A stretch of 7,961 nt of DNA, from positions 1-7,961 of the forward strand of contig CACXEL010000053.1 in assembly GCA_902766655.1 (NCBI GenBank). The letters are read 5' to 3'. Under the pieces are notes generated by a model. It was not told the origin of the DNA. It saw only the letters and a list, made by a program, of their open reading frames with translations, and did no database searches. Both the position numbers and the translations under genes were made by a program. The stretch is from an uncultured Lachnospiraceae bacterium (lineage in GTDB: Bacteria; Bacillota; Clostridia; Lachnospirales; Lachnospiraceae). Numbering within the stretch: position 1 is the first letter of the stretch; every line of letters begins with the position of its first letter. Shown here in pieces: positions 1-7,961 of this stretch.

Positions 1-377
1 GTCGGGATGCCGATGTAATTCATCTTGTACTTGGCGGACTTGCAGTCGCCGGAGCACTTGACGAAAGCGACGTTCTTCACGCCCTCTTCCGCCGCGACGC
101 CCATGATGGCGCCGACCTTGTCAGCCACCGCAGCGCCGCCGACCGGGCAGGCGTTGACGGGAGCTTCGCCCTTGGCGATGGCCGCAGCGCAGCCGTCGCA
201 GCCGGGATAGCCGCAGGCGCCGCAGTTGTTCCCGGGAAGGACTTCACGGACGGCAGCCTCATTGGGATCTACCTCGACCGCAAAGGCGTGGCCGGCAGTG
301 ACCAGCATGAAGCCAATCAGAAAGCCGATGACAGCCAGAAGTATGACTGTTACGACCAGTAATCCTACTCCACTCAT
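1..377 (-). CDS. rnfB: RnfB, ion-translocating Rnf complex iron-sulfur subunit (N-terminal part, runs off left edge)
   Basis: RnfB carries electrons from ferredoxin into the Rnf membrane complex through several iron-sulfur clusters on the cytoplasmic side. The frame is open from the ATG at 377 to the window edge, giving about 125 residues. Residues 4-26 form one hydrophobic membrane helix. After it comes the 4Fe-4S domain typical of RnfB, with C52, C55, C60 and C77 in the arrangement CGACGYPGC...ACPVGG; C63 is an extra cysteine nearby. Two further cysteines lie at about 106 and 110 (KCSGDC), before the cut. The C-terminal ferredoxin-like clusters expected in full-length RnfB lie beyond the window. 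The start is supported by an AGGAGA ribosome binding site six bases upstream and by the membrane helix directly following. It is the last rnf gene seen, matching the clostridial order C-D-G-E-A-B. Confidence 0.95.
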   Translation of the reverse strand, partial: MSGVGLLVVTVILLAVIGFLIGFMLVTAGHAFAVEVDPNEAAVREVLPGNNCGACGYPGCDGCAAAIAKGEAPVNACPVGGAAVADKVGAIMGVAAEEGVKNVAFVKCSGDCKSAKYKMNYIGIP

Positions 378-383
378 GTAAGT

Positions 384-389
384 TCTCCT
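384..389 (-). promoter_or_regulatory. Ribosome binding site of rnfB
   Basis: The minus strand reads AAAAGGAGAAC six bases before the rnfB ATG. The site sits directly after the last copy of the 14-bp tandem repeat, so translation of rnfB probably depends on this site and not on close coupling to rnfA, whose stop is 41 nt upstream of the rnfB start. Confidence 0.7.
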
Positions 390-390
390 T

Positions 391-432
391 TTAGCCAATA
401 CTTATTAGCCAATATTGATTAGCCAATACTGA
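391..432 (-). repeat. Three tandem copies of a 14-bp unit across the rnfA stop codon
   Basis: On the plus strand the units are TTAGCCAATACTTA (391-404), TTAGCCAATATTGA (405-418) and TTAGCCAATACTGA (419-432). On the minus strand each unit ends in GGCTAA. The copy at 419-432 encodes the last residues and the TAA stop of rnfA; the other two fill the spacer before rnfB. Because 14 is not a multiple of three, the three TAA codons fall in the three different reading frames, so all frames are closed here. The repeat probably arose by slippage duplication of the end of rnfA; any regulatory role is unknown. Confidence 0.9.
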
Positions 433-1000
433 TGCTGCTGAAACCAAAGAAAGCCATTCCCATGAGGGCCGCGCAGAAGAGTACCATCGGCGCTCCCTTG
501 ATGGGTTCGGGGACGTCTGCATTGTCGATCCGCTCGCGGATGCCGGCCAGGAGCACGATGGCGATGGTGTAGCCCACAGCCGTGCCGAAGCCGTTGATGA
601 CAGACTCAATGAAATTGTAACCGTCGGTCACGTTGTTGAGGGCCACACCGAGCACGGCACAGTTGGTCGTGATCAGCGGAAGGAAGATGCCCAGGGCCTT
701 GTAAAGGCCGGGGGAAGTCTTCTTGAGGAACATTTCGACCAGCTGGACCAGGGCAGCGATGACCAGGATGAAGACGATCGTCTGCAGGTAGTCAAGACCG
801 AGCGGGGCGAGAATAAAGGTGTACAGGAGGTACGCAACCGCCGAGGCGATGGTCAGAACGAAAATGACGGCACCGCCCAGAGAGGCGGAAGTCTTGATCT
901 GATTGGAAACGCCGACGAAGGAGCAGATACCGAGGAACTGGGACAGGACGACGTTGTTGACCAGCGCCGCCGTCACGATGATAAGGATCAGATTGGTCAT
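419..1000 (-). CDS. rnfA: RnfA, membrane subunit of the Rnf complex
   Basis: RnfA (193 residues, the normal family length) is an integral membrane subunit homologous to NqrE. With RnfE it forms the inverted-topology core of the complex, and the pair holds a [2Fe-2S] cluster inside the membrane that passes electrons from the cytoplasmic to the outer side. The sequence is nearly all hydrophobic helices, about six. The two cluster cysteines are visible: C26 in LGICSFVGVSN and C114 in TTNCAVLGVAL, each in one half of the pseudo-symmetric fold. The start ATG at 1000 lies one base after the rnfE stop, and its ribosome binding site lies within the last codons of rnfE, so the two should be translationally coupled. 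The 3' end is part of a 14-bp tandem repeat. Confidence 0.97.
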   Translation of the reverse strand: MTNLILIIVTAALVNNVVLSQFLGICSFVGVSNQIKTSASLGGAVIFVLTIASAVAYLLYTFILAPLGLDYLQTIVFILVIAALVQLVEMFLKKTSPGLYKALGIFLPLITTNCAVLGVALNNVTDGYNFIESVINGFGTAVGYTIAIVLLAGIRERIDNADVPEPIKGAPMVLFCAALMGMAFFGFSSISIG

Positions 1001-1001
1001 C

Positions 1002-1685
1002 TTACTTCACCTCCTTCTTTACCAGGCAGGTGTCGGCCATGGCACATCCGGCGCAGCCGGCGCCTTCACCTTCACCGACGAATTCCTTGCCCTTGTTGGA
1101 GATGCCCCAGGCATTCATGACCATGATAATGAAGGCAAGGACCAGGAAGGCACCCGGTGCCCTGACCAGCATGTCGATGGGCTGATAGAAGGCAGGCATG
1201 ACCTGATAGCCCATGAGAGTGCCTGCGCCGAAGAGCTCTCTGAAAGCCGACAGGAGCAGGAGACCCCAGGTGAAGCCCAGGCCCATGCCAATACCGTCCA
1301 TAACGGACAGGAGCGGCGGGTTCTTGGAAGCGTAGGCCTCGGCACGGCCGAGGATGATGCAGTTGACGACGATCAGCGGGATGTAGACGCCGAGGGCGTT
1401 GTTGATCTCAAGGAAATACGCCTGCATGATCAGCTGGACGACCGTGACCATGGATGCGACGATGACGATGAAAGCCGGAAGACGGACCTCATCCGGGATC
1501 AGCTTTCTGACCAGGGAGATGATGAGGTTCGACATGACCAGAACGACCATGGTCGACAGGCCCATACCGATGGCGTTGGTGACCGACGTGGTGACAGCCA
1601 GGGTCGGGCACATGCCCAGCATCATGATGAAGGTGGGGTTCTCCTTGACAACGCCGTTGTAGATGCGTTCCATATTCGCGTTCAT
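1002..1685 (-). CDS. rnfE: RnfE, membrane subunit of the Rnf complex
   Basis: RnfE (227 residues) is homologous to NqrD and pairs with RnfA to form the membrane core that holds the intramembrane [2Fe-2S] cluster. The two expected ligand cysteines are C26 in GMCPTLAVTTS and C109 in VVNCIILGRAEAYA. About six membrane helices are visible. The open frame extends upstream to 1778, but the ATG at 1685 is chosen because AAGGAGGTGG lies five bases before it and because MNANMERIYNGVVKENP matches the usual RnfE N-terminus. The extra upstream residues would lie inside the rnfDG gene. An unusual feature is the cytoplasmic-looking tail after the last helix (about residues 196-227), acidic and glycine-rich with C211, C214 and C220 (CAGCAMADTC), a possible metal or Fe-S binding appendage. 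The final KEVK codons double as the ribosome binding site for rnfA. Confidence 0.96.
   Translation of the reverse strand: MNANMERIYNGVVKENPTFIMMLGMCPTLAVTTSVTNAIGMGLSTMVVLVMSNLIISLVRKLIPDEVRLPAFIVIVASMVTVVQLIMQAYFLEINNALGVYIPLIVVNCIILGRAEAYASKNPPLLSVMDGIGMGLGFTWGLLLLSAFRELFGAGTLMGYQVMPAFYQPIDMLVRAPGAFLVLAFIIMVMNAWGISNKGKEFVGEGEGAGCAGCAMADTCLVKKEVK
1005..1016 (-). promoter_or_regulatory. Ribosome binding site of rnfA embedded in the last codons of rnfE
   Basis: The minus strand reads AAGGAGGTGAAG TAA G ATG. The codons AAG-GAG-GTG-AAG encode the RnfE tail Lys-Glu-Val-Lys and at the same time form a near-perfect Shine-Dalgarno sequence for rnfA. This fixes the rnfA start at 1000. Confidence 0.85.
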
Positions 1686-1690
1686 GTATT

Positions 1691-1701
1691 CCACCTCCTT
1701 A
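1691..1701 (-). promoter_or_regulatory. Ribosome binding site of rnfE overlapping the rnfDG stop codon
   Basis: The minus strand reads TAAGGAGGTGG then AATAC before the ATG at 1685. The TAA is the stop codon of rnfDG, so termination and initiation signals share bases. This decides the rnfE start against the longer open frame. Confidence 0.85.
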
Positions 1702-3357
1702 ACCGATACAGTTCTTCTGATAGAAGTCGATGGCAGCGTTGACCGCGTTGACGACTGCGCCGGAGGTAGTGGAAGCACCGGAGACGGAGTCGATCTCGTC
1801 GTCGGCCGTGGAGCCGCCCGCCTTGATCAGAGTGAAGGAATCGACCTTGACGTTGGAGAATTGAGCCTTCCAGGCATCCGTGTCGGCCAGCATACCCATG
1901 CCGGCGGTCTCATTGATGGTCGTGAAGGAGATGCCGAGAAGGGTGCCCTCCGTGTCGAAGCCTATGGACAGGGCGATCTCGCCGTCATAGCCGTCCATGG
2001 AGGAGACGTTGAAGGCGTAACCGACGATGTTGCCGGAGGCGTCGAGACCGACGCAGCCTTCGTTGATGTAGACACGGCCGTAGCTGGTGCCGTAGACCTC
2101 GCCGCCCAGAGCCTCGACGGCCGCTGACAACGCGTCGTCGTAGCCGATATGGTCAGCCTGGGGCTGGACTGCCTCGTAGGCGGCCAGCGCAGCGGCTTCC
2201 TGATTGGCCTTGATGGTATCGGCGGTCATCATGTTGACACCCGCCAGAGCCGCACCGGCGATGAGCGTGATGCAGCAGAGGATGGCTGCGGAGACCGGGA
2301 AGGTGAAGCCCTTCTTTGTCTCGCCTGCCTTGGCCTTGGCGGCCTCGGCCTTCTCGGCAGCGAGAGCTTCCTTCTCAGCCTTCTTCTGCTCCTCGGCCCT
2401 GGCCTTGGCCTGAGCCTTGGCCTCGGCGGAGACGACCGGCTTGCCGACGCCCCACGGATGCACGACAACGTACTTGTCGATGATCGGTGTGAAGAGGTTG
2501 GCGATGATGATGGCATAGGACATACCGTCGGTCATGCTGCTCTTCAGCCTGAAGAGGGCGGCCAGGAAGCCGACCAGGGCGCCGAAGATCAGCTGGCCTT
2601 CATTTGTCATGGGCGAGGAGACCGGATCGGTCGCCATGAAGAAGATGCCCAGGATGAAGCCGCCGCCAACCAGCTGGACCACGAGATACTTGAGGTCGAA
2701 GCCGGCCGGGCCGAAGGCCAGCATCATGATGGCGAATACGGCCGCGGAAGAGACCGGGATCTGCCAGGTGATGGTGCCGGTAGCCAGCAGGAAAATGCCG
2801 CCGATGAGGAGGCAGAGGATGGACACGCCGATGTGGCCTGTCGCAAAGCCCAGGAACATCTTCATCATGTCGACAGTACCGCCGCCGTTCAGCGTCGCGA
2901 GGGGCGTGGCGGAGGACATGCCGTCGACCGCGTAATCTGTCATCAGCTTGCCGAAGGAGATGATCAGGAAGACACGGCCGGCCAGGGCCGGGTTCATAAA
3001 GTTCTTGCCGAGACCGCCGAAGAAGTTCTTGGCGATGATGATGGCGAACATGGAGCCGATGAAGGGGATGAAGAGCGGCACCTTCGGAGACAGGCAGAGA
3101 GCCAGCAGAAGGCCGGTGACGATCGCGGATCCATCCCAGAGGGTGTTCGGCTTGTGGGCGATGTAGTCGTAAAGGAACTCAAAGAAGGTGGCGGAGACCA
3201 CGCTGGTCAGGATGACCAGCAGGGCGTGGAGGCCGAAATGGTACACGCCGAAGAAGGTGGCCGGCATGAGGGCCAGGACCACGTTCCACATCTCCTTGCC
3301 TACCGTGTGCTCGCTCCTGAAATGCGGGGAGGAGGAAACGTTGAACAGTTTGGACAT
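1699..3357 (-). CDS. rnfDG: RnfD-RnfG fusion protein, membrane and extracytosolic FMN subunits of the Rnf complex
   Basis: One uninterrupted 552-residue frame joins two subunits that are normally separate. Residues 1 to about 305 are RnfD (homologous to NqrB): about nine or ten membrane helices, NPALAGRVF at 122-130, and the flavinylation motif DGMSSAT with T151 as predicted covalent FMN site. Residues about 310-350 are a linker of Ala, Lys and Glu, probably helical and cytoplasmic because it is rich in Lys/Arg. Residues about 351-375 form the RnfG membrane anchor. Residues about 376-552 are the extracytosolic FMN-binding domain, ending in DSVSGAS (523-529). The family consensus has Thr at the last position; here it is S529, followed by T530 and T531. 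The topology suits a fusion, since the RnfD C-terminus and the RnfG N-terminus are both expected on the cytoplasmic side. The start at 3357 follows the rnfC stop with no gap and has AAGGAGG eight bases upstream. Confidence 0.95.
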   Translation of the reverse strand: MSKLFNVSSSPHFRSEHTVGKEMWNVVLALMPATFFGVYHFGLHALLVILTSVVSATFFEFLYDYIAHKPNTLWDGSAIVTGLLLALCLSPKVPLFIPFIGSMFAIIIAKNFFGGLGKNFMNPALAGRVFLIISFGKLMTDYAVDGMSSATPLATLNGGGTVDMMKMFLGFATGHIGVSILCLLIGGIFLLATGTITWQIPVSSAAVFAIMMLAFGPAGFDLKYLVVQLVGGGFILGIFFMATDPVSSPMTNEGQLIFGALVGFLAALFRLKSSMTDGMSYAIIIANLFTPIIDKYVVVHPWGVGKPVVSAEAKAQAKARAEEQKKAEKEALAAEKAEAAKAKAGETKKGFTFPVSAAILCCITLIAGAALAGVNMMTADTIKANQEAAALAAYEAVQPQADHIGYDDALSAAVEALGGEVYGTSYGRVYINEGCVGLDASGNIVGYAFNVSSMDGYDGEIALSIGFDTEGTLLGISFTTINETAGMGMLADTDAWKAQFSNVKVDSFTLIKAGGSTADDEIDSVSGASTTSGAVVNAVNAAIDFYQKNCIG

Positions 3358-4701
3358 TTATTTACCCTCCTTCGCTTTCTGCGCGCGCATGTAGCCCATG
3401 GCTGCGGGCTTCATCTGCTTGAACATCGGTGTCAGCGGGCGCTTGGCCGGGCATACGTAGGTACAGCTGCCGCAGAGCATGCAGTCGATACCGTGGATCT
3501 GGATGAAGCGGTCGAAATCCTTGCGCTCGCAGGCGACGGCCATCTGCTGGGGAATGAGGCCCATCGGACATGCGCGGGTGCAGCGTCCGCAGCGGATGCA
3601 GTTCTCCTGCTGGGCCTCGGCGCGCTCCACGTCATCCTCGGAGAGAACGGTCAGCGCGTTGTTGGCCTTCTTGATCGGCACGTCCACACCCGGAATGGCG
3701 ATACCCATCATGGGGCCGCCAAAGAGGAGCTTCTTTGCGTCGTCATTGAGACCGCCGGCAGCCTCGACCACCTCGGACAGCGGTGTACCGATGCGGACCA
3801 GGAAGTTGCCGGGATTGGCCACAGCGCCGGTGACGGTAAAGCCTCTCTCCATGAGCGGCTCATTCCACACAACAGCCCTGTAGATGGCAGCCAGAGTGCC
3901 TACGTTGTCCACAACGCAGCCGCAGCTGGCCGGCAGGGCGCCGGAGCCGATATACTTGCCGGTCACGGAATAGACGATGTTGCGCTCACCGCCCTGGGGA
4001 TAGCAGGTCTTCAGGGCCTCGACCTCAATGTTGGGGTAAGGCTCCGCAGCGGCCTTCATGGTGCCGATGGCATCGGGCTTGTTGTCCTCGATGACCACCA
4101 CGCCCTTGGCGCCGGGGAAGATCTTGAGGCAGCAGAGAAGACCGCCGATGATCTCCTCCGGCTTTTCAAGCATGAGCCTGTGGTCGCAGGTGATATAAGG
4201 CTCGCACTCTGCTCCGTTGGCGATGATGTACTTGATCTCATCGGGATTGGAGGGCATCATTTTCACGTGGGTCGGGAAGCCCGCGCCGCCCATACCTACG
4301 ATGCCTGCCCTCTTGATCTTCTCGATGATCTCGGAAGGCTCAAGAGTGTCCAGCGGAGTCTCGTCGCCCACGCCGGGCGCCGTCTTGAACTCGCCGTCGC
4401 TGGCGATCACGATGCAGTCCGCCATGGTGCCTGCATCGGTCATTCTCGGCTCGATTGCTTTGACCTTACCGGAGCAGGAGCTGATGATGTTTGCGGAGAT
4501 GAACCCATCCGCTTCGGCTATGAGCTGACCGGCGAAGACCGGGTCATTCCGCTTGACGACCGGCTTGGCCGGACGGCCGGTGTGCTGGCTGAGCGGAATG
4601 ATGACCTCGTCTTTGGGAATGACCGTTACAAATGGCTTGTCCTTGGTCTGCTCCTTGTGCGCGTTCGGATGGACACCTCCTCTTACCTGGAAGATCTTCA
4701 T
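3358..4701 (-). CDS. rnfC: RnfC, NADH-binding peripheral subunit of the Rnf complex
   Basis: RnfC (447 residues, normal for the family) is the cytoplasmic subunit that exchanges electrons with NAD(H) through FMN and two 4Fe-4S clusters. The N-terminal barrel-sandwich region opens with FQVRGGVHPNAHK. Next is the NuoF-like nucleotide/FMN-binding region with GMGGAGFPTHVK at 136-147 and NGAECEPYITCDHR at 162-175. An SLBB-type segment follows at about 288-335 (VTGAVANPGNF...GTPLSEVVEAAGG). The C-terminus has two ferredoxin motifs: C368, C371, C374, C378 and C407, C410, C413, C417, each ending in Cys-Pro. The start at 4701 has GGAAAGGA about six bases upstream. It is the first rnf gene of the cluster and lies 102 bases after the flavoprotein gene. 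Its end overlaps the ribosome binding site of rnfDG. Confidence 0.97.
   Translation of the reverse strand: MKIFQVRGGVHPNAHKEQTKDKPFVTVIPKDEVIIPLSQHTGRPAKPVVKRNDPVFAGQLIAEADGFISANIISSCSGKVKAIEPRMTDAGTMADCIVIASDGEFKTAPGVGDETPLDTLEPSEIIEKIKRAGIVGMGGAGFPTHVKMMPSNPDEIKYIIANGAECEPYITCDHRLMLEKPEEIIGGLLCCLKIFPGAKGVVVIEDNKPDAIGTMKAAAEPYPNIEVEALKTCYPQGGERNIVYSVTGKYIGSGALPASCGCVVDNVGTLAAIYRAVVWNEPLMERGFTVTGAVANPGNFLVRIGTPLSEVVEAAGGLNDDAKKLLFGGPMMGIAIPGVDVPIKKANNALTVLSEDDVERAEAQQENCIRCGRCTRACPMGLIPQQMAVACERKDFDRFIQIHGIDCMLCGSCTYVCPAKRPLTPMFKQMKPAAMGYMRAQKAKEGK
3366..3372 (-). promoter_or_regulatory. Ribosome binding site of rnfDG embedded in the end of rnfC
   Basis: The minus strand reads AAGGAGGGTAAATAAATG. 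AAG-GAG-GGT-AAA encodes the RnfC tail Lys-Glu-Gly-Lys, TAA stops rnfC and ATG starts rnfDG at once. The arrangement parallels the rnfE-rnfA junction. Confidence 0.85.
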
Positions 4702-4803
4702 AGAGTATCCTTTCCTTATTTGAGTAGTTGCAGGACAGTGCTTTCATTTATCGGGAAATAAAAACACCGCCCCAGGATATATGTTGCCAATAATAATGCT
4801 CGA
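4702..4803 (-). other. A/T-rich gap between the flavoprotein gene and rnfC
   Basis: This is the longest gap in the window and is more A/T-rich than the genes around it. It holds the rnfC ribosome binding site (GGAAAGGA, about 4708-4717). A TTGGCA near 4785-4790 resembles a -35 box, but there is no convincing -10 box at 16-18 bases. A GC block followed by TTTTTATTT (about 4755-4772) has no matching upstream arm, so I do not call a terminator. An internal rnf promoter is possible but not shown. Confidence 0.4.
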
Positions 4804-6993
4804 TCAGATTCCGTTCACCGCGTTCTTGCCGGCGAGGTAGCCGTAGTAGAGGGCCATGCCGTGGGACACACCCTTGAGGGTGATCGGGTACTCGTGGGCA
4901 AAACGGTTGCCCTGGTTGTTGCCGGCGCAGTAGAGGCCGGGGATGATGTTGCGGTCGGCGTCGAAGGTGTGGCAGTCCTCGTCGGACTCCAGGCCACCGC
5001 AGATGACCAGCAGGAGAGCCGTGCTGAACTTGTCGGCGTAGAAGGGGGCCTTCTCCAGCTTGAACATGCGGCTGGCCGTCTTGCCGAAGTCGAGGTCCTC
5101 GCCCTTGTCGCAGAGCTCGTTGTAGCGCTCGATGGAAGCCAGGGCCGTCTTCTGGGCCGCCGGGTCATCCGGATACAGGATCGCCACCAGGTCCTCCAGC
5201 GTATCCGCCGTGACGCAGCGTCCGTCCGCGATGGCGGCCTCAAGCTGATAAGGACTCTTGTAATTGCGGTAGGTCGCGTTGTTCTTCGGGCCTTCCTCCG
5301 CGGAGGCGTAGTCCTCGTAGTAGCAGGCGCCACCGTGCTCAGCCGGCATGAAGGGCAGCTGCTCCGGCCAGCCCGCATCGAAGATCTGCCAGGAGGACAT
5401 GTCCTTCAGAAGCTCGATCTGGTTCTCGATCTGCTGGCCCGGCAGGTCCTCATTCATGAAGCGCTTGCCGTTCATATCCAGGTTCAGGAAACCGGCGATG
5501 CCCATAACGCCGACGCCGGAGAGATCCGCGCCGCCGCCCATGTGGTGGATCATCGGCGCGTGGTCCTCCTGGACGTTGGCGCCGGCCCACATGCCGAGCT
5601 TAATGCCGTCGCCGTTGTTGGTCATATTGCCCTCCACATCCACGTTGGTGAAGAGGCGCATGATGTTGTGCTCGATGACGTCCGGCGTGAAATGCTTCAC
5701 CATGGCGTCATTCTGCGAATAGTCGCCGCAGCAGAGGATGACGCCCTTGGAGGCCTTGACCTTGATGTAGGTGTTGTCCTCGGCCTTGCGGATGTAGGCG
5801 CCGGTGCAGCGGCCGTTCTCCATGATCAGCTTCTCGGCGAAGCAGCCGTAGCGGGCGTCCACGTTGCCGGTGGCGATGGCGGCGTCCATGTTGCAGTTCA
5901 GGTTCACAGCCTGGTTGGGCAGGAACTCGACGGAGGTCGGGTAGCAGGGGAACTGCTCATTCTCCACCTTGTAGGCCTCCGGAAGCGGATGGAAGATGGG
6001 GATGATGAAGTTGCCCGCATTTTCATCCGGGATGTCGGCGCGGGTGGACTCGGCGTAGTAGAGGTCCTTGTTGGGCTCCACATACCAGTCGAAAACTTCG
6101 CCGATGTTGTTGAGATACCTGCGGACGATGGCTTCCTTGACCTTGTAGCTGGATTCCTCCATGTGGAAGCGCACCATCTCGTTGATTTCCTTCTGGGTGT
6201 AGATATTGCGTCCCCACCTGGCCTGGACGTTGCCGTTGATGACGGCGAACTCGCCGGACCGGCACTGGGGGCCGTTGCCCTTCTCCACCGCGAAGACCTT
6301 GGCGCCCTCCTCGGCCGCGCTCCTGGCTGCCGAGACACCGGCCAGGCCAAGGCCGATGACCAGGACTTCCGTCTCTGCCTCCTCGGTCACGTCGCTGTCG
6401 GAGATCTCCGGGGCTTCGCCGAGCCAGTCATCGTCGGAGGCGGCTGCAGCGCCGGCCCCTTCGGCTGCGGCGGCCTTTGTGCCGTTCGCCTGGGCAATAC
6501 AGTCGTCCAGCGCAGTCTTCACCGCGTTGGTGGTCAGCGTGGCGCCAGAGACGCCGTCGATATCGCTGCCCTGGGCCTCGAGGCACTGGGCGATCAGTTC
6601 ATCCGCGGCCACGCCGCCGATGGATTCGGTCTCCTCGGAGACATCCAGCTCGATGGCCGTGATGGAGGTCTCGTCGAAGGTCGCCGTGACGGTCACCTTG
6701 CCGAGGCCCTGGGCCGAAGCCGTGTAGGTGCCCGGCGTGTAGGATCCGCTGCCGACGGCTTCATTTACGGTTTCCACGACTTCCTCGGAGACGGCCGCCG
6801 CCGTTGGCTCCGCAGCTGCGCTCTCGACTGCTTCCGCCGCGGCATCTGCCGCCTTCCCGGCGACTGCTTCCGTGCCCGCAGAGCCGGTCCGCGAGAACTC
6901 GAAGCCTTCGAGTATGCCCACTGCGGCCATGCTGGCCGCTCCGGCTGCCATACCCTTCAGAAAGTCGCGCCTTGATATTTCCTTGCTTGCCAT
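4804..6993 (-). CDS. Tat-exported FMN/FAD flavoprotein, fumarate-reductase-like superfamily, substrate unknown
   Basis: This 729-residue protein begins with a twin-arginine signal: SRRDFLKG at 7-14, then a hydrophobic stretch to about residue 28. There is no lipobox cysteine, so it should be soluble or loosely attached outside the cell membrane. After an Ala/Glu-rich linker (about 41-82) comes an FMN-binding domain (about 84-168) with DGVSGAT at 146-152, so T152 is the predicted covalent FMN site. A second low-complexity acidic linker (about 169-208) leads to an FAD-binding reductase domain (209-729) with dinucleotide motif VIGLGLAGVSAARSA (212-226), NNGDGIKLGMWAGA (459-472), and a C-terminal FAD segment IPGLYCAGNNQGN (684-696). 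The layout resembles urocanate and fumarate reductases of anaerobes. By eye alignment with Shewanella fumarate reductase, however, the key catalytic arginine and the substrate-binding His/Arg positions are not conserved (G519, V663, T706 region), so fumarate is unlikely. Adjacent tatAC and rnf genes suggest export by Tat and electron supply from Rnf. The start at 6993 has AAGGAAGGAG six bases upstream. Confidence 0.92.
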   Translation of the reverse strand: MASKEISRRDFLKGMAAGAASMAAVGILEGFEFSRTGSAGTEAVAGKAADAAAEAVESAAAEPTAAAVSEEVVETVNEAVGSGSYTPGTYTASAQGLGKVTVTATFDETSITAIELDVSEETESIGGVAADELIAQCLEAQGSDIDGVSGATLTTNAVKTALDDCIAQANGTKAAAAEGAGAAAASDDDWLGEAPEISDSDVTEEAETEVLVIGLGLAGVSAARSAAEEGAKVFAVEKGNGPQCRSGEFAVINGNVQARWGRNIYTQKEINEMVRFHMEESSYKVKEAIVRRYLNNIGEVFDWYVEPNKDLYYAESTRADIPDENAGNFIIPIFHPLPEAYKVENEQFPCYPTSVEFLPNQAVNLNCNMDAAIATGNVDARYGCFAEKLIMENGRCTGAYIRKAEDNTYIKVKASKGVILCCGDYSQNDAMVKHFTPDVIEHNIMRLFTNVDVEGNMTNNGDGIKLGMWAGANVQEDHAPMIHHMGGGADLSGVGVMGIAGFLNLDMNGKRFMNEDLPGQQIENQIELLKDMSSWQIFDAGWPEQLPFMPAEHGGACYYEDYASAEEGPKNNATYRNYKSPYQLEAAIADGRCVTADTLEDLVAILYPDDPAAQKTALASIERYNELCDKGEDLDFGKTASRMFKLEKAPFYADKFSTALLLVICGGLESDEDCHTFDADRNIIPGLYCAGNNQGNRFAHEYPITLKGVSHGMALYYGYLAGKNAVNGI

Positions 6994-6999
6994 TCTGGT

Positions 7000-7009
7000 C
7001 TCCTTCCTT
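7000..7009 (-). promoter_or_regulatory. Ribosome binding site of the flavoprotein gene
   Basis: The minus strand reads AAGGAAGGAG, then ACCAGA, then the ATG at 6993. The strong site directly before a start that yields a full Tat signal peptide settles the start codon. Confidence 0.8.
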
Positions 7010-7020
7010 ATAAAGTGCTG

Positions 7021-7063
7021 CAGGCTTTTCCTCCTGCCGCCGGGCGGCAGTTGACGAAGCCTG
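7021..7063 (-). promoter_or_regulatory. Two-tier inverted repeat in the leader of the flavoprotein gene
   Basis: The inner palindrome at 7034-7050 is CTGCCGCC, one central base, GGCGGCAG; a folded RNA could form a 7-bp GC-rich stem with a 3-nt loop. An outer perfect 7-bp pair, CAGGCTT (7021-7027) and AAGCCTG (7057-7063), encloses it with six unpaired bases on each side. No T-run follows on the minus strand, so it is not a standard intrinsic terminator. It may be an RNA stability or processing element, an attenuator, or a protein-binding palindrome between tatC and the flavoprotein gene. Confidence 0.6.
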
Positions 7064-7079
7064 TATGAAAAAGCTGCTG

Positions 7080-7886
7080 TTAGTCACGGGTTCCTTGTGT
7101 GGCTTCCTTCTCCTTCTCCGCCTTATTCCGCTTCCGGACCAGACGGCTCAGGAAAATGGAGACCTGGTAGAGCGCGATCATAGGTACGGCGACCATGACC
7201 TGGGAGACCACGTCCGGAGGCGTGATCAGCGCAGCCACCAGGAAAATGACGACAATGGCCACCTTGCGCCCCTTGACGAGCCACTCCGCCCGGAGGATAC
7301 CGAGCCGGGTGAGGATCACGGACGCCATCGGCATCTCGAAGACGATGCCGAAGATGATGAAGACTGTCATCAGAAAGTTGATATATTCCTTAATGCTGAT
7401 GGAATCCGTGACCTCAATCCCGTCACTGAACTGGATCAGGAAATTCAGCATAAAAGGCATGGTGATAAAATACGCGAAGGCGACGCCGATCAGAAAGCAG
7501 ATGCCCCCGAAGACGAGTGCCAGCGCGAAGAAGACCTGCTCGGTCCGCTTCATCCCCGGTACGCAGAAGGCGTATATCTCGAAGGCGATCACCGGGGAAG
7601 CGATGACCAGCCCGCCGATCAGCGAGATGGAAAAGTAGACGAGCAGCAGCTCCTGCGGGGACAGGTATACGAAGGTATAGTTGTACCTGGTCCCCAGGTC
7701 CATCAGGGTCGTCACGATCTGCGGCGAGAAATAAAGACACAGCAGAACGCCGGCGACGAAGAAGACCAGCATGACGGCCACGCGGTTGCGCATCTCCTTG
7801 AGGTGGCCGGTCAACGGCATGCTCCCGTCGCCCGCCGCCTTCTTTCCGCCCGCCGCAGCCTTGTCCTGAGTCTTACTGCTTTTCAT
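7080..7886 (-). CDS. tatC: TatC, twin-arginine translocase receptor subunit
   Basis: TatC recognises twin-arginine signal peptides and, with TatA, moves folded cofactor-loaded proteins across the membrane. The protein is 268 residues with about six membrane helices. Family signatures are present: HLKEMRNRV (28-36) in the N-terminal signal-peptide binding region, SPQE with E79, FEMP with E184, and ITPPDVVSQ (221-229) followed by VPMIALYQVSIFL. The last position of the usual LYE motif is Gln here. The C-terminus is a short charged cytoplasmic tail. I chose ATG 7886, which overlaps the tatA stop by 14 bases; the open frame reaches another ATG at 7916, which would add an MRTRRRRARP extension. AAGGAGGA lies 14 bases before 7886, a long spacing, so the exact start is less sure than the gene. 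The likely export substrate, the twin-arginine flavoprotein, is the next gene. Confidence 0.95.
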   Translation of the reverse strand: MKSSKTQDKAAAGGKKAAGDGSMPLTGHLKEMRNRVAVMLVFFVAGVLLCLYFSPQIVTTLMDLGTRYNYTFVYLSPQELLLVYFSISLIGGLVIASPVIAFEIYAFCVPGMKRTEQVFFALALVFGGICFLIGVAFAYFITMPFMLNFLIQFSDGIEVTDSISIKEYINFLMTVFIIFGIVFEMPMASVILTRLGILRAEWLVKGRKVAIVVIFLVAALITPPDVVSQVMVAVPMIALYQVSIFLSRLVRKRNKAEKEKEATQGTRD

Positions 7887-7961
7887 CGGGCGTGCTCTTC
7901 TCCTCCTTGTCCGCATCGGCTTCCATTCCCTCGCGGAAGCCCTTCACGCTCTTGCCGAACA
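7873..7961 (-). CDS. tatA: TatA-type translocase pore subunit (C-terminal end only, runs off right edge)
   Basis: The last 28 codons of a gene entering from the right edge read FGKSVKGFREGMEADADK and then a charged tail ending DEKQ, with the TAA stop at 7873-7875. The Phe-Gly-Lys-Ser...Phe-Arg-Glu-Gly pattern and acidic/basic tail match the end of the amphipathic helix and the C-terminal tail of TatA/TatE proteins. The N-terminal membrane helix lies outside the window. The stop overlaps the tatC start by 14 bases (ATGAAAAGCAGTAA), which implies coupled translation and supports the identification. TatB cannot be strictly excluded from this fragment, but two-component TatA-TatC systems are the rule in Gram-positive bacteria. 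Confidence 0.8.
   Translation of the reverse strand, partial: FGKSVKGFREGMEADADKEEKSTPDEKQ

What the first reader, a model, noticed from the sequence alone, without database searches (positions are those of the whole stretch)
4804..7961. TatA-TatC, a Tat-exported FMN/FAD reductase and Rnf in one collinear block: possible Rnf-powered extracytosolic respiration
All genes face one way with short gaps. The flavoprotein has a textbook twin-arginine signal and sits between the Tat genes and rnfC. Rnf normally ends at NAD+, but its RnfG and RnfD FMN groups face the outside. A reductase with its own FMN domain next to Rnf suggests that electrons from ferredoxin or NADH can leave through RnfG FMN to the reductase FMN, then FAD, then an external acceptor, possibly with ion pumping. 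This would be a quinone- and cytochrome-independent respiratory branch. Flavin-based extracytosolic transfer is an established theme, but this particular union of Tat, reductase and rnf in one block is unfamiliar to me.
Basis: inference. Interest (0 to 1): 0.75.

Follow-up and report, generated by a model that had tools for sequence, protein, structure and literature searches.

The report
Rnf-powered exported flavin reductase cassette
In about thirty bacterial species the genes for a protein exporter, for flavin enzymes that mostly carry that exporter's signal, and for the membrane electron complex Rnf lie in one row, which would likely let the cell pass electrons through Rnf to molecules outside it without needing quinones.

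Summary
Observation confirmed. On the minus strand lie the 3' end of tatA, tatC, a 729-aa protein (twin-arginine signal, FMN_bind domain with SGAT site, FAD_binding_2 domain), rnfC, a fused rnfDG, rnfE, rnfA and partial rnfB. The order is not peculiar to this strain: of 44 non-duplicate loci with tatC upstream of rnfC, 30 have one to three FMN-FAD reductases between them, 8 only multi-FMN_bind protein(s), 6 nothing. In the window's genus TatC is rare (7 of 42 genomes) and all 7 Tat signals detected in those genomes sit on such reductases. No UbiA match in 11 of 11 genomes tested. In a 97%-complete relative the only FMN_bind proteins found are RnfDG and its Tat reductase. Best reading (inferred): RnfG's FMN passes electrons to Tat-exported reductases. 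The window's own copy is a recent insertion: its near sister has tatC next to rnfC with a homologous leader. Substrate unknown; not a fumarate reductase by sequence. Rnf feeding external acceptors through multi-flavin RnfG was already proposed (PMC8238504); my searches found no report of this tat-reductase-rnf cassette.

The parts
7873..7961 (-). tatA, 3' end only (contig ends here)
   Evidence: Reading: 29 codons matching the C-terminus of the complete tatA of sister genome G036 (L063)
7080..7886 (-). tatC (ORF open to 7916; ATG at 7886 likelier because G036 shares it)
   Evidence: TatC PF00902 1.1e-58; TIGR00945 over cut-off
4804..6993 (-). Tat-signal FMN_bind/FAD_binding_2 flavoprotein, predicted exported reductase
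6919..6993 (-). twin-arginine signal ISRRDFLKGMAAGAAS
   Evidence: PF10518 31.4 bits; Arg at position 9 in 22 of 29 window-type rows (4 gaps, 3 other residues) and 48 of 51 other rows
6496..6702 (-). FMN_bind domain
   Evidence: PF04205
6538..6540 (-). Thr152 of SGAT, predicted ApbE flavinylation site
   Evidence: T or S in 29 of 29 window-type and 50 of 51 other rows; one ApbE gene found in the genome, contig C72
4912..6366 (-). FAD_binding_2 catalytic domain
   Evidence: PF00890 1.9e-34
4702..4790 (-). rnfC leader, homologous to the tatC-rnfC spacer of the near sister
   Evidence: local alignment score 112 against a maximum of 50 in 500 shuffles
3358..4701 (-). rnfC
   Evidence: TIGR01945 8.8e-149
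1699..3357 (-). rnfD-rnfG fusion; RnfG FMN_bind at 1726-1992, RnfD motif DGMSSATP, RnfG motif IDSVSGAS
1002..1685 (-). rnfE
   Evidence: TIGR01948 2.6e-74
419..1000 (-). rnfA
   Evidence: TIGR01943 6.6e-78
3..398 (-). rnfB, 5' part (cut by contig end)
   Evidence: TIGR01944 over cut-off, FeS domain PF04060

Best explanation
The block is a cassette of Tat-exporter genes, a flavoprotein with a twin-arginine signal plus FMN_bind and FAD domains, and the Rnf genes, and it most likely works as an Rnf-fed respiratory branch in which the exported enzyme is predicted to take electrons from RnfG's outward-facing FMN and hand them to a small organic acceptor outside the cell. Steps: (1) the folded flavoprotein leaves by Tat (signal shown, export inferred); (2) ApbE attaches FMN to Thr152 of the enzyme and to RnfG and RnfD (sites shown, attachment inferred); (3) reduced ferredoxin via RnfB-RnfA/E, or NADH via RnfC, reduces RnfG FMN (established for Rnf, as reviewed in PMC12174285; the NADH direction is its reverse mode); (4) RnfG FMN reduces the enzyme's FMN domain, directly here or through a multi-FMN protein in related loci (inferred); (5) FAD reduces an uncharged or bulky C=C substrate (inferred from loss of the fumarate-binding arginines); (6) if electrons enter from ferredoxin, the ion step proposed at RnfA/E for Acetobacterium woodii lies before the exit and would still pump (inferred from PMC12174285).
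For: Conserved slot: 44 non-duplicate tatC-rnfC loci, 38 with FMN_bind proteins between them (30 with reductases, 8 multi-FMN only; the 8 have 4 to 7 FMN_bind stretches by Pfam). Short gaps: median 96 bp from tatC to reductase (25 loci, range -122 to 329) and 33 bp from reductase to rnfC (26 loci, range -289 to 223), with roughly guessed start codons. In 6 of the 8 multi-FMN cases (L201-L206) a FAD protein with an RR signal is divergently encoded about 0.9 to 3.1 kb upstream of tatC. Rnf-adjacency changes at least 6 times on the reductase tree, and two genus genomes have the reductase convergent with rnf (G011, G033). Export: TatC over cut-off in 7 of 42 genus genomes, 6 of the 7 carry the reductase; all 7 Tat-signal hits in these genomes are on the reductases, 0 in the 6 Tat-less genus genomes tested. 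Minimal case: in G026 (97% complete) only RnfDG and the Tat reductase match FMN_bind, with no UbiA; there the two genes are on different contigs.
Against: No expression, flavinylation or electron-transfer data. In 32 of 64 judgeable loci the query reductase is not followed by rnfC on its strand. The slot is empty in 5 of 6 readable genus genomes, and the window's nearest sister lacks the gene there, so this copy arrived recently. In 14 of 30 further genomes tatC and rnfD are on different contigs. Rnf is common anyway (RnfC_N match in 86 of 99 relatives), so RnfD in 30 of 30 says little. NapH-like Fer4_5 proteins, possible other donors, occur in 8 of 11 genomes. Tat is not reserved for reductases outside the genus: in G099 and G100 one Tat-signal protein each is a solute-binding protein. 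ApbE is not in the block.
Confidence: 0.62

Rival explanations
1. The exported reductase is fed by another membrane donor (NapH-like, or an unknown one); tat, reductase and rnf genes lie together because they share anaerobic or redox regulation.
For: NapH-like Fer4_5 proteins in 8 of 11 genomes; half of the judgeable reductase loci are not followed by rnfC; characterised reductases of this class are thought to use electron-transport components encoded elsewhere (PMC8238504 section 16).
Against: In G026 only RnfDG and the reductase match FMN_bind, no UbiA is found, and its one Fer4_5 protein ends in a redoxin domain of its own; 3 of 11 genomes show no Fer4_5 match; multi-FMN proteins take the same slot between tatC and rnfC.
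Confidence: 0.2
2. Electrons do leave through Rnf, but only as a sink: they enter from NADH by RnfC-RnfD-RnfG, bypassing the ion-coupled step, so that the branch regenerates NAD+ without pumping.
For: RnfC with its Complex1_51K domain is intact; covalent FMN of a multi-FMN protein sits at -184 mV (PMC10339131), downhill from NADH.
Against: Nothing in the sequence separates the two entry points.
Confidence: 0.1
3. The enzyme runs as a dehydrogenase and feeds substrate electrons into RnfG, driving reduction of NAD+.
For: Close folds include ketosteroid and cyclohexanone dehydrogenases; relatives of the other subfamily keep Tyr at the position of KstD's LPY motif (49 of 51).
Against: The window type has Gly there (29 of 29); dehydrogenation of C-C bonds is energetically uphill toward flavins at about -200 mV (general chemistry, not tested here).
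Confidence: 0.06
4. Chance neighbourhood or assembly artefact.
For: The window is a whole 7961-bp contig of a fragmented genome and the near sister lacks the insertion.
Against: The same order recurs in many separately assembled genomes, including one whose record title does not say MAG or uncultured (KH1T2, locus L195), and reductase-rnf without tatC in another (NK3B98, L151).
Confidence: 0.02

Closest known systems
RNF clusters with multi-flavinylated RnfG (Meheust et al. 2021, PMC8238504; passages plus sections 16 and 18 read)
   Same: Rnf proposed to send electrons out to extracytosolic acceptors through covalent FMN
   Different: There the extra FMN domains are in RnfG itself; here RnfG has one FMN_bind domain and the outlet is a separate Tat reductase or a separate multi-FMN protein between tatC and rnfC
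Flavinylated extracytosolic fumarate and urocanate reductases (Listeria, Shewanella UrdA; as described in PMC8238504)
   Same: FMN_bind plus FAD_binding_2 architecture, flavinylation motif, exported
   Different: Those are thought to be fed by components encoded elsewhere; the arginines of fumarate reductase are missing here
Rnf-MmcA of Methanosarcina acetivorans (passage in PMC12174285; PMC6703419 seen only as listing and abstract start)
   Same: Rnf linked to reduction of extracellular acceptors
   Different: Uses a multihaem cytochrome; here flavins, and no CxxCH in window frames over 100 aa
NQR/RNF-like two-subunit systems (PMC8238504, PMC11334425; passages)
   Same: One-way electron export to an FMN domain
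   Different: Those have an RnfD-like protein fused to a NAD-binding domain; here all six Rnf functions are encoded (rnfB cut by the contig end)

Membership tests
Rnf complex | subunits A, C, D, E and G | tested here: met
   A, C, D, E over the NCBIfam cut-off; RnfG by PF04205 over cut-off but 90.8 bits to TIGR01947 (cut-off 102); D and G fused
Rnf complex | complete RnfB with ferredoxin-like domain | tested here: inconclusive
   rnfB cut by the contig end; its first 132 aa pass TIGR01944
Rnf complex | covalent FMN sites in RnfG and RnfD | tested here: met
   IDSVSGAS and DGMSSATP; the RnfD motif is SSAT, a variant also seen in Tat-less genus members; attachment itself not testable
Flavinylated extracytosolic PF00890 reductases | FMN_bind with [S/T]GA[S/T], FAD_binding_2 domain, export signal | tested here: met
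Fumarate reductase (FccA type) | active-site Arg402 and second substrate arginine in HGxNRxGG (roles recalled) | tested here: not met
   profile alignment puts G519 at Arg402 and the YPITLKG stretch at NRLGG; G519 in 29 of 29 window-type rows
Urocanate reductase UrdA | fold of the FAD domain | tested here: met
Urocanate reductase UrdA | urocanate-specific residues and activity | not tested
   residues not compared one by one
Ketosteroid dehydrogenases (KstD) | Tyr of the LPY motif (role recalled) | tested here: not met
   Gly519 in the window type; the Tyr of the YP motif (Tyr702) is kept
Multi-flavinylated RnfG RNF | more than one FMN_bind domain in RnfG | tested here: not met
   one FMN_bind match in RnfDG
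Cytochrome-linked Rnf (MmcA type) | multihaem protein in the cluster | tested here: inconclusive
   no CxxCH in window frames over 100 aa, but the contig ends on both sides
Rnf-driven respiration (function) | electron transfer from Rnf to the reductase, ion pumping | not testable with these tools
   needs biochemistry

The most novel reading that the evidence does not exclude
Rnf in these Clostridia is a respiratory hub with an interchangeable outlet: a slot between tatC and rnfC takes either one to three Tat-exported FMN-FAD reductases of different substrate type or a multi-FMN wire, so that ferredoxin oxidation pumps ions and ends on organic molecules outside the cell, with no quinone and, in the window's genus, a Tat system kept for this purpose alone.
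Probability: 0.45. Interest if true: 0.85.

Novelty: new variant of a known kind. Interest (0 to 1): 0.72.

Why it matters
Rnf is usually described as a ferredoxin:NAD+ pump with both ends in the cytosol. A recurrent gene block that places exported flavin reductases, or multi-FMN proteins, directly beside rnfC would make Rnf the first pump of a flavin-only respiratory chain in bacteria usually counted as fermenters, several of them from animal guts by their record titles. It also gives an unusual picture of Tat: in the window's genus the detectable Tat signals all sit on this enzyme class. It makes an open question testable: what feeds the many FMN_bind reductases that lie in genomes without a known donor.

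Tried and rejected
Considered and dropped: (1) strain-specific accident, because the order recurs widely, though the window's own copy looks like a separate arrival: its nearest tree neighbours are not rnf-linked. (2) Fumarate reductase, because both substrate arginines are missing. (3) A known riboswitch or other RNA in the window: none at gathering thresholds. (4) Substrate from neighbour genes: not pursued; substrate stays unknown. (5) UrdA or KstD by fold: the top rows differ little in Z, so fold does not pick the substrate. (6) A Tat system reserved for reductases everywhere: not so in G099 and G100, where one Tat-signal protein each is a solute-binding protein.

Limits of the counts. The 79 loci were the best 80 kept of 223 relatives, found by similarity to an alignment (A1) of the window protein and five genus relatives, so reductases in their slots are partly there by selection. 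The 44 slots are those with tatC and rnfC on one strand within 9 kb; I listed eight loci beforehand as duplicates of genomes already counted (L138, L152, L163, L169, L173, L190, L208, L210). In the tree 16 loci with under 2.5 kb downstream were left out of the change count; it is a FastTree tree, which warned of long branches (L135, L155). The Tat-signal census covered 18 genomes: the 7 Tat-bearing genus members, 6 of the 35 Tat-less ones, and 5 outside genomes; the model misses weak or RK signals (the KH1T2 slot reductase reads SRKTF). Outside the genus it gave 13 hits: 9 in block reductases, 2 on other FMN_bind proteins (G102 C26, G103 C5), 2 on solute-binding proteins. RnfC_N also matches proteins other than RnfC. 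TatA was not searched in relatives: my query was translated one base out of frame and found nothing. The loci are not phylogenetically independent.

Literature: the searches listed no paper on a tat-reductase-rnf cassette; I saw listings and abstract starts, and passages of five papers. The library lacks most subscription papers, and the supplementary tables of PMC8238504, which may list such clusters, could not be read. Light 2019 and Little 2024 were seen only as reference entries.

Full report
What is there. The window is a complete 7961-bp contig of a 76%-complete genome. The genes I recognise all run on the minus strand: the last 29 codons of tatA, tatC, a 729-aa flavoprotein, rnfC, a fused rnfDG, rnfE, rnfA and the first 132 codons of rnfB. 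The flavoprotein has a twin-arginine signal (ISRRDFLKG), one FMN_bind domain with DGVSGAT, and a FAD_binding_2 domain.

The window's own history. G036, whose tatC, rnfC, rnfDG, rnfE and rnfA products are 89-97% identical to the window's, has tatA-tatC-rnfC with nothing between. The leader in front of the window's rnfC aligns with G036's tatC-rnfC spacer (score 112, best of 500 shuffles 50), while the stretch after tatC does not (24.5, shuffle mean 24.1). With the slot also empty in G003, G011, G026 and G033, the simplest account is that the gene was inserted between tatC and rnfC in the window's lineage. On the reductase tree its nearest rows are copies not linked to rnf. The window genome also holds what looks like a second Tat reductase, split over two contig ends (C64 and C146), 93.5% and 95.5% identical to the matching parts of G036's.

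Conservation elsewhere. The protein family is large: 5849 of 7996 scored candidates at E up to 1e-60, the closest 92% identical. A scan of named genomes gave 79 loci. Of 64 judgeable downstream, 32 have rnfC on the same strand after the reductase, 30 of them within 350 bp; 26 also have tatC upstream. Some blocks hold two or three reductases in tandem (L109, L111, L112, L116, L120, L123). Thirty genomes whose hit mostly lay outside a full block were then searched: RnfD family 30 of 30, TatC 28 of 30. Twelve of them have tatC directly upstream of rnfC: 3 slots with a reductase, 8 with a protein of 4 to 7 FMN_bind domains, 1 empty. In 14 of the 30 tatC and rnfD are on different contigs, in 2 on one contig in another order, in 2 no TatC was found. 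In 6 of the 8 multi-FMN cases (L201-L206) a FAD protein with an RR signal is divergently encoded 0.9-3.1 kb upstream of tatC. Pooled and freed of duplicates, 44 tatC-rnfC loci carry reductases in 30, only multi-FMN proteins in 8 and nothing in 6. Record titles put the 26 full blocks in Lachnospiraceae, Oscillospiraceae and otherwise unplaced Clostridia. Two same-genus genomes without TatC (G031, G039) have rnf followed by a fumarate-reductase-type protein with two FMN_bind sites. Against this: half of the judgeable loci are not rnf-linked, and the pooled set was partly gathered by reductase similarity.

Tat and the reductase go together in the genus. TatC is over cut-off in 9 of 99 relatives, 7 of 42 in the genus. 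Close reductase homologues (E below 1e-70) occur in 7 of 42; 6 of these have TatC; the seventh (G008) does not, and its match starts after the signal. The seventh TatC genome, G003, is 64% complete and shows no close reductase. In the Tat-bearing genus genomes the Tat-signal model hits only reductases (G000 two; G011, G018, G026, G033, G036 one each; G003 none) and hits none of the 6 Tat-less genus genomes tested. Outside the genus the link is looser: of 13 hits in 5 genomes, 11 are on FMN_bind proteins and 2 on solute-binding proteins.

Alternative donors. UbiA, the prenyltransferase family of known quinone pathways (recalled), has no match in 11 of 11 genomes while all 14 controls ring. FMN_bind proteins occur in all 11; in G026, 97% complete, the only two are RnfDG and the Tat reductase. 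NapH-like Fer4_5 matches occur in 8 of 11, so another donor is not excluded; G026's is a 550-aa protein ending in a redoxin domain. Rnf is common in this order anyway (RnfC_N in 86 of 99).

Mechanism. PMC12174285 (passages) describes electrons passing from RnfB by the RnfA/E iron-sulfur cluster to RnfG's partly exposed FMN outside, then RnfD and RnfC to NAD+, with sodium movement proposed at RnfA/E for A. woodii. A branch at RnfG would thus keep the pump if electrons enter from ferredoxin. A multi-FMN protein measured at -184 mV (PMC10339131, passages) would fit between. I commit to this model at 0.62; direct transfer, ion pumping and the acceptor are all inferred.

Novelty. Meheust 2021 (sections 16 and 18) already proposed that Rnf with multi-flavinylated RnfG reaches external acceptors, and that FMN-binding domains feed extracytosolic reductases from membrane components. 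What is added is a recurrent cassette that joins the two, with Tat, and a separate multi-FMN protein as an alternative in the same slot. My searches (listed under Tried and rejected) showed no report of it.

Noticed in passing
window 1699-3357: rnfD and rnfG are one gene here and in most block and genus loci read; the linker between them is rich in Lys, Glu and Ala.
   Followed up: partly
L056 11154-12434 (G039): A gene with four CxxCH motifs lies downstream of rnf and a 2x FMN_bind reductase in a same-genus genome, hinting at a haem branch.
   Followed up: no
L045 445-6534 (G000 contig C81): Two large proteins with 2 and 5 FMN_bind domains plus a FAD domain; the larger has the TRD motif of fumarate reductases.
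   Followed up: no
L042 and L044 (G000 C64, C146): The window genome's apparent second Tat reductase is split by two contig ends.
   Followed up: partly
L109 5300-7426 and L123 6023-8299: The window-type reductase frame is interrupted in these two assemblies; described only.
   Followed up: no
L170 9278-12777: A 3x FMN_bind protein and a reductase stand together between tatC and rnfC, a possible wire plus enzyme.
   Followed up: no
L194, L198, L201, L205 slot proteins and L170: The five multi-FMN proteins whose starts I read begin with a signal like that of the reductases but without the RR pair (SRET, PRKT, SRTT), as if a Tat signal had become a membrane anchor.
   Followed up: no
L128 9857-14741: A Synergistaceae MAG has two RR-signal reductases convergent with tatC, without rnf in the fetched stretch.
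   Followed up: no
L105 8011-10647 (G097): RnfG with 4 FMN_bind matches in another family of the order, the published multi-flavin RnfG type.
   Followed up: no
L192 5348-7078 and L193 6995-8704 (G099, G100): Solute-binding proteins with Tat signals on the same contig as tatC.
   Followed up: partly
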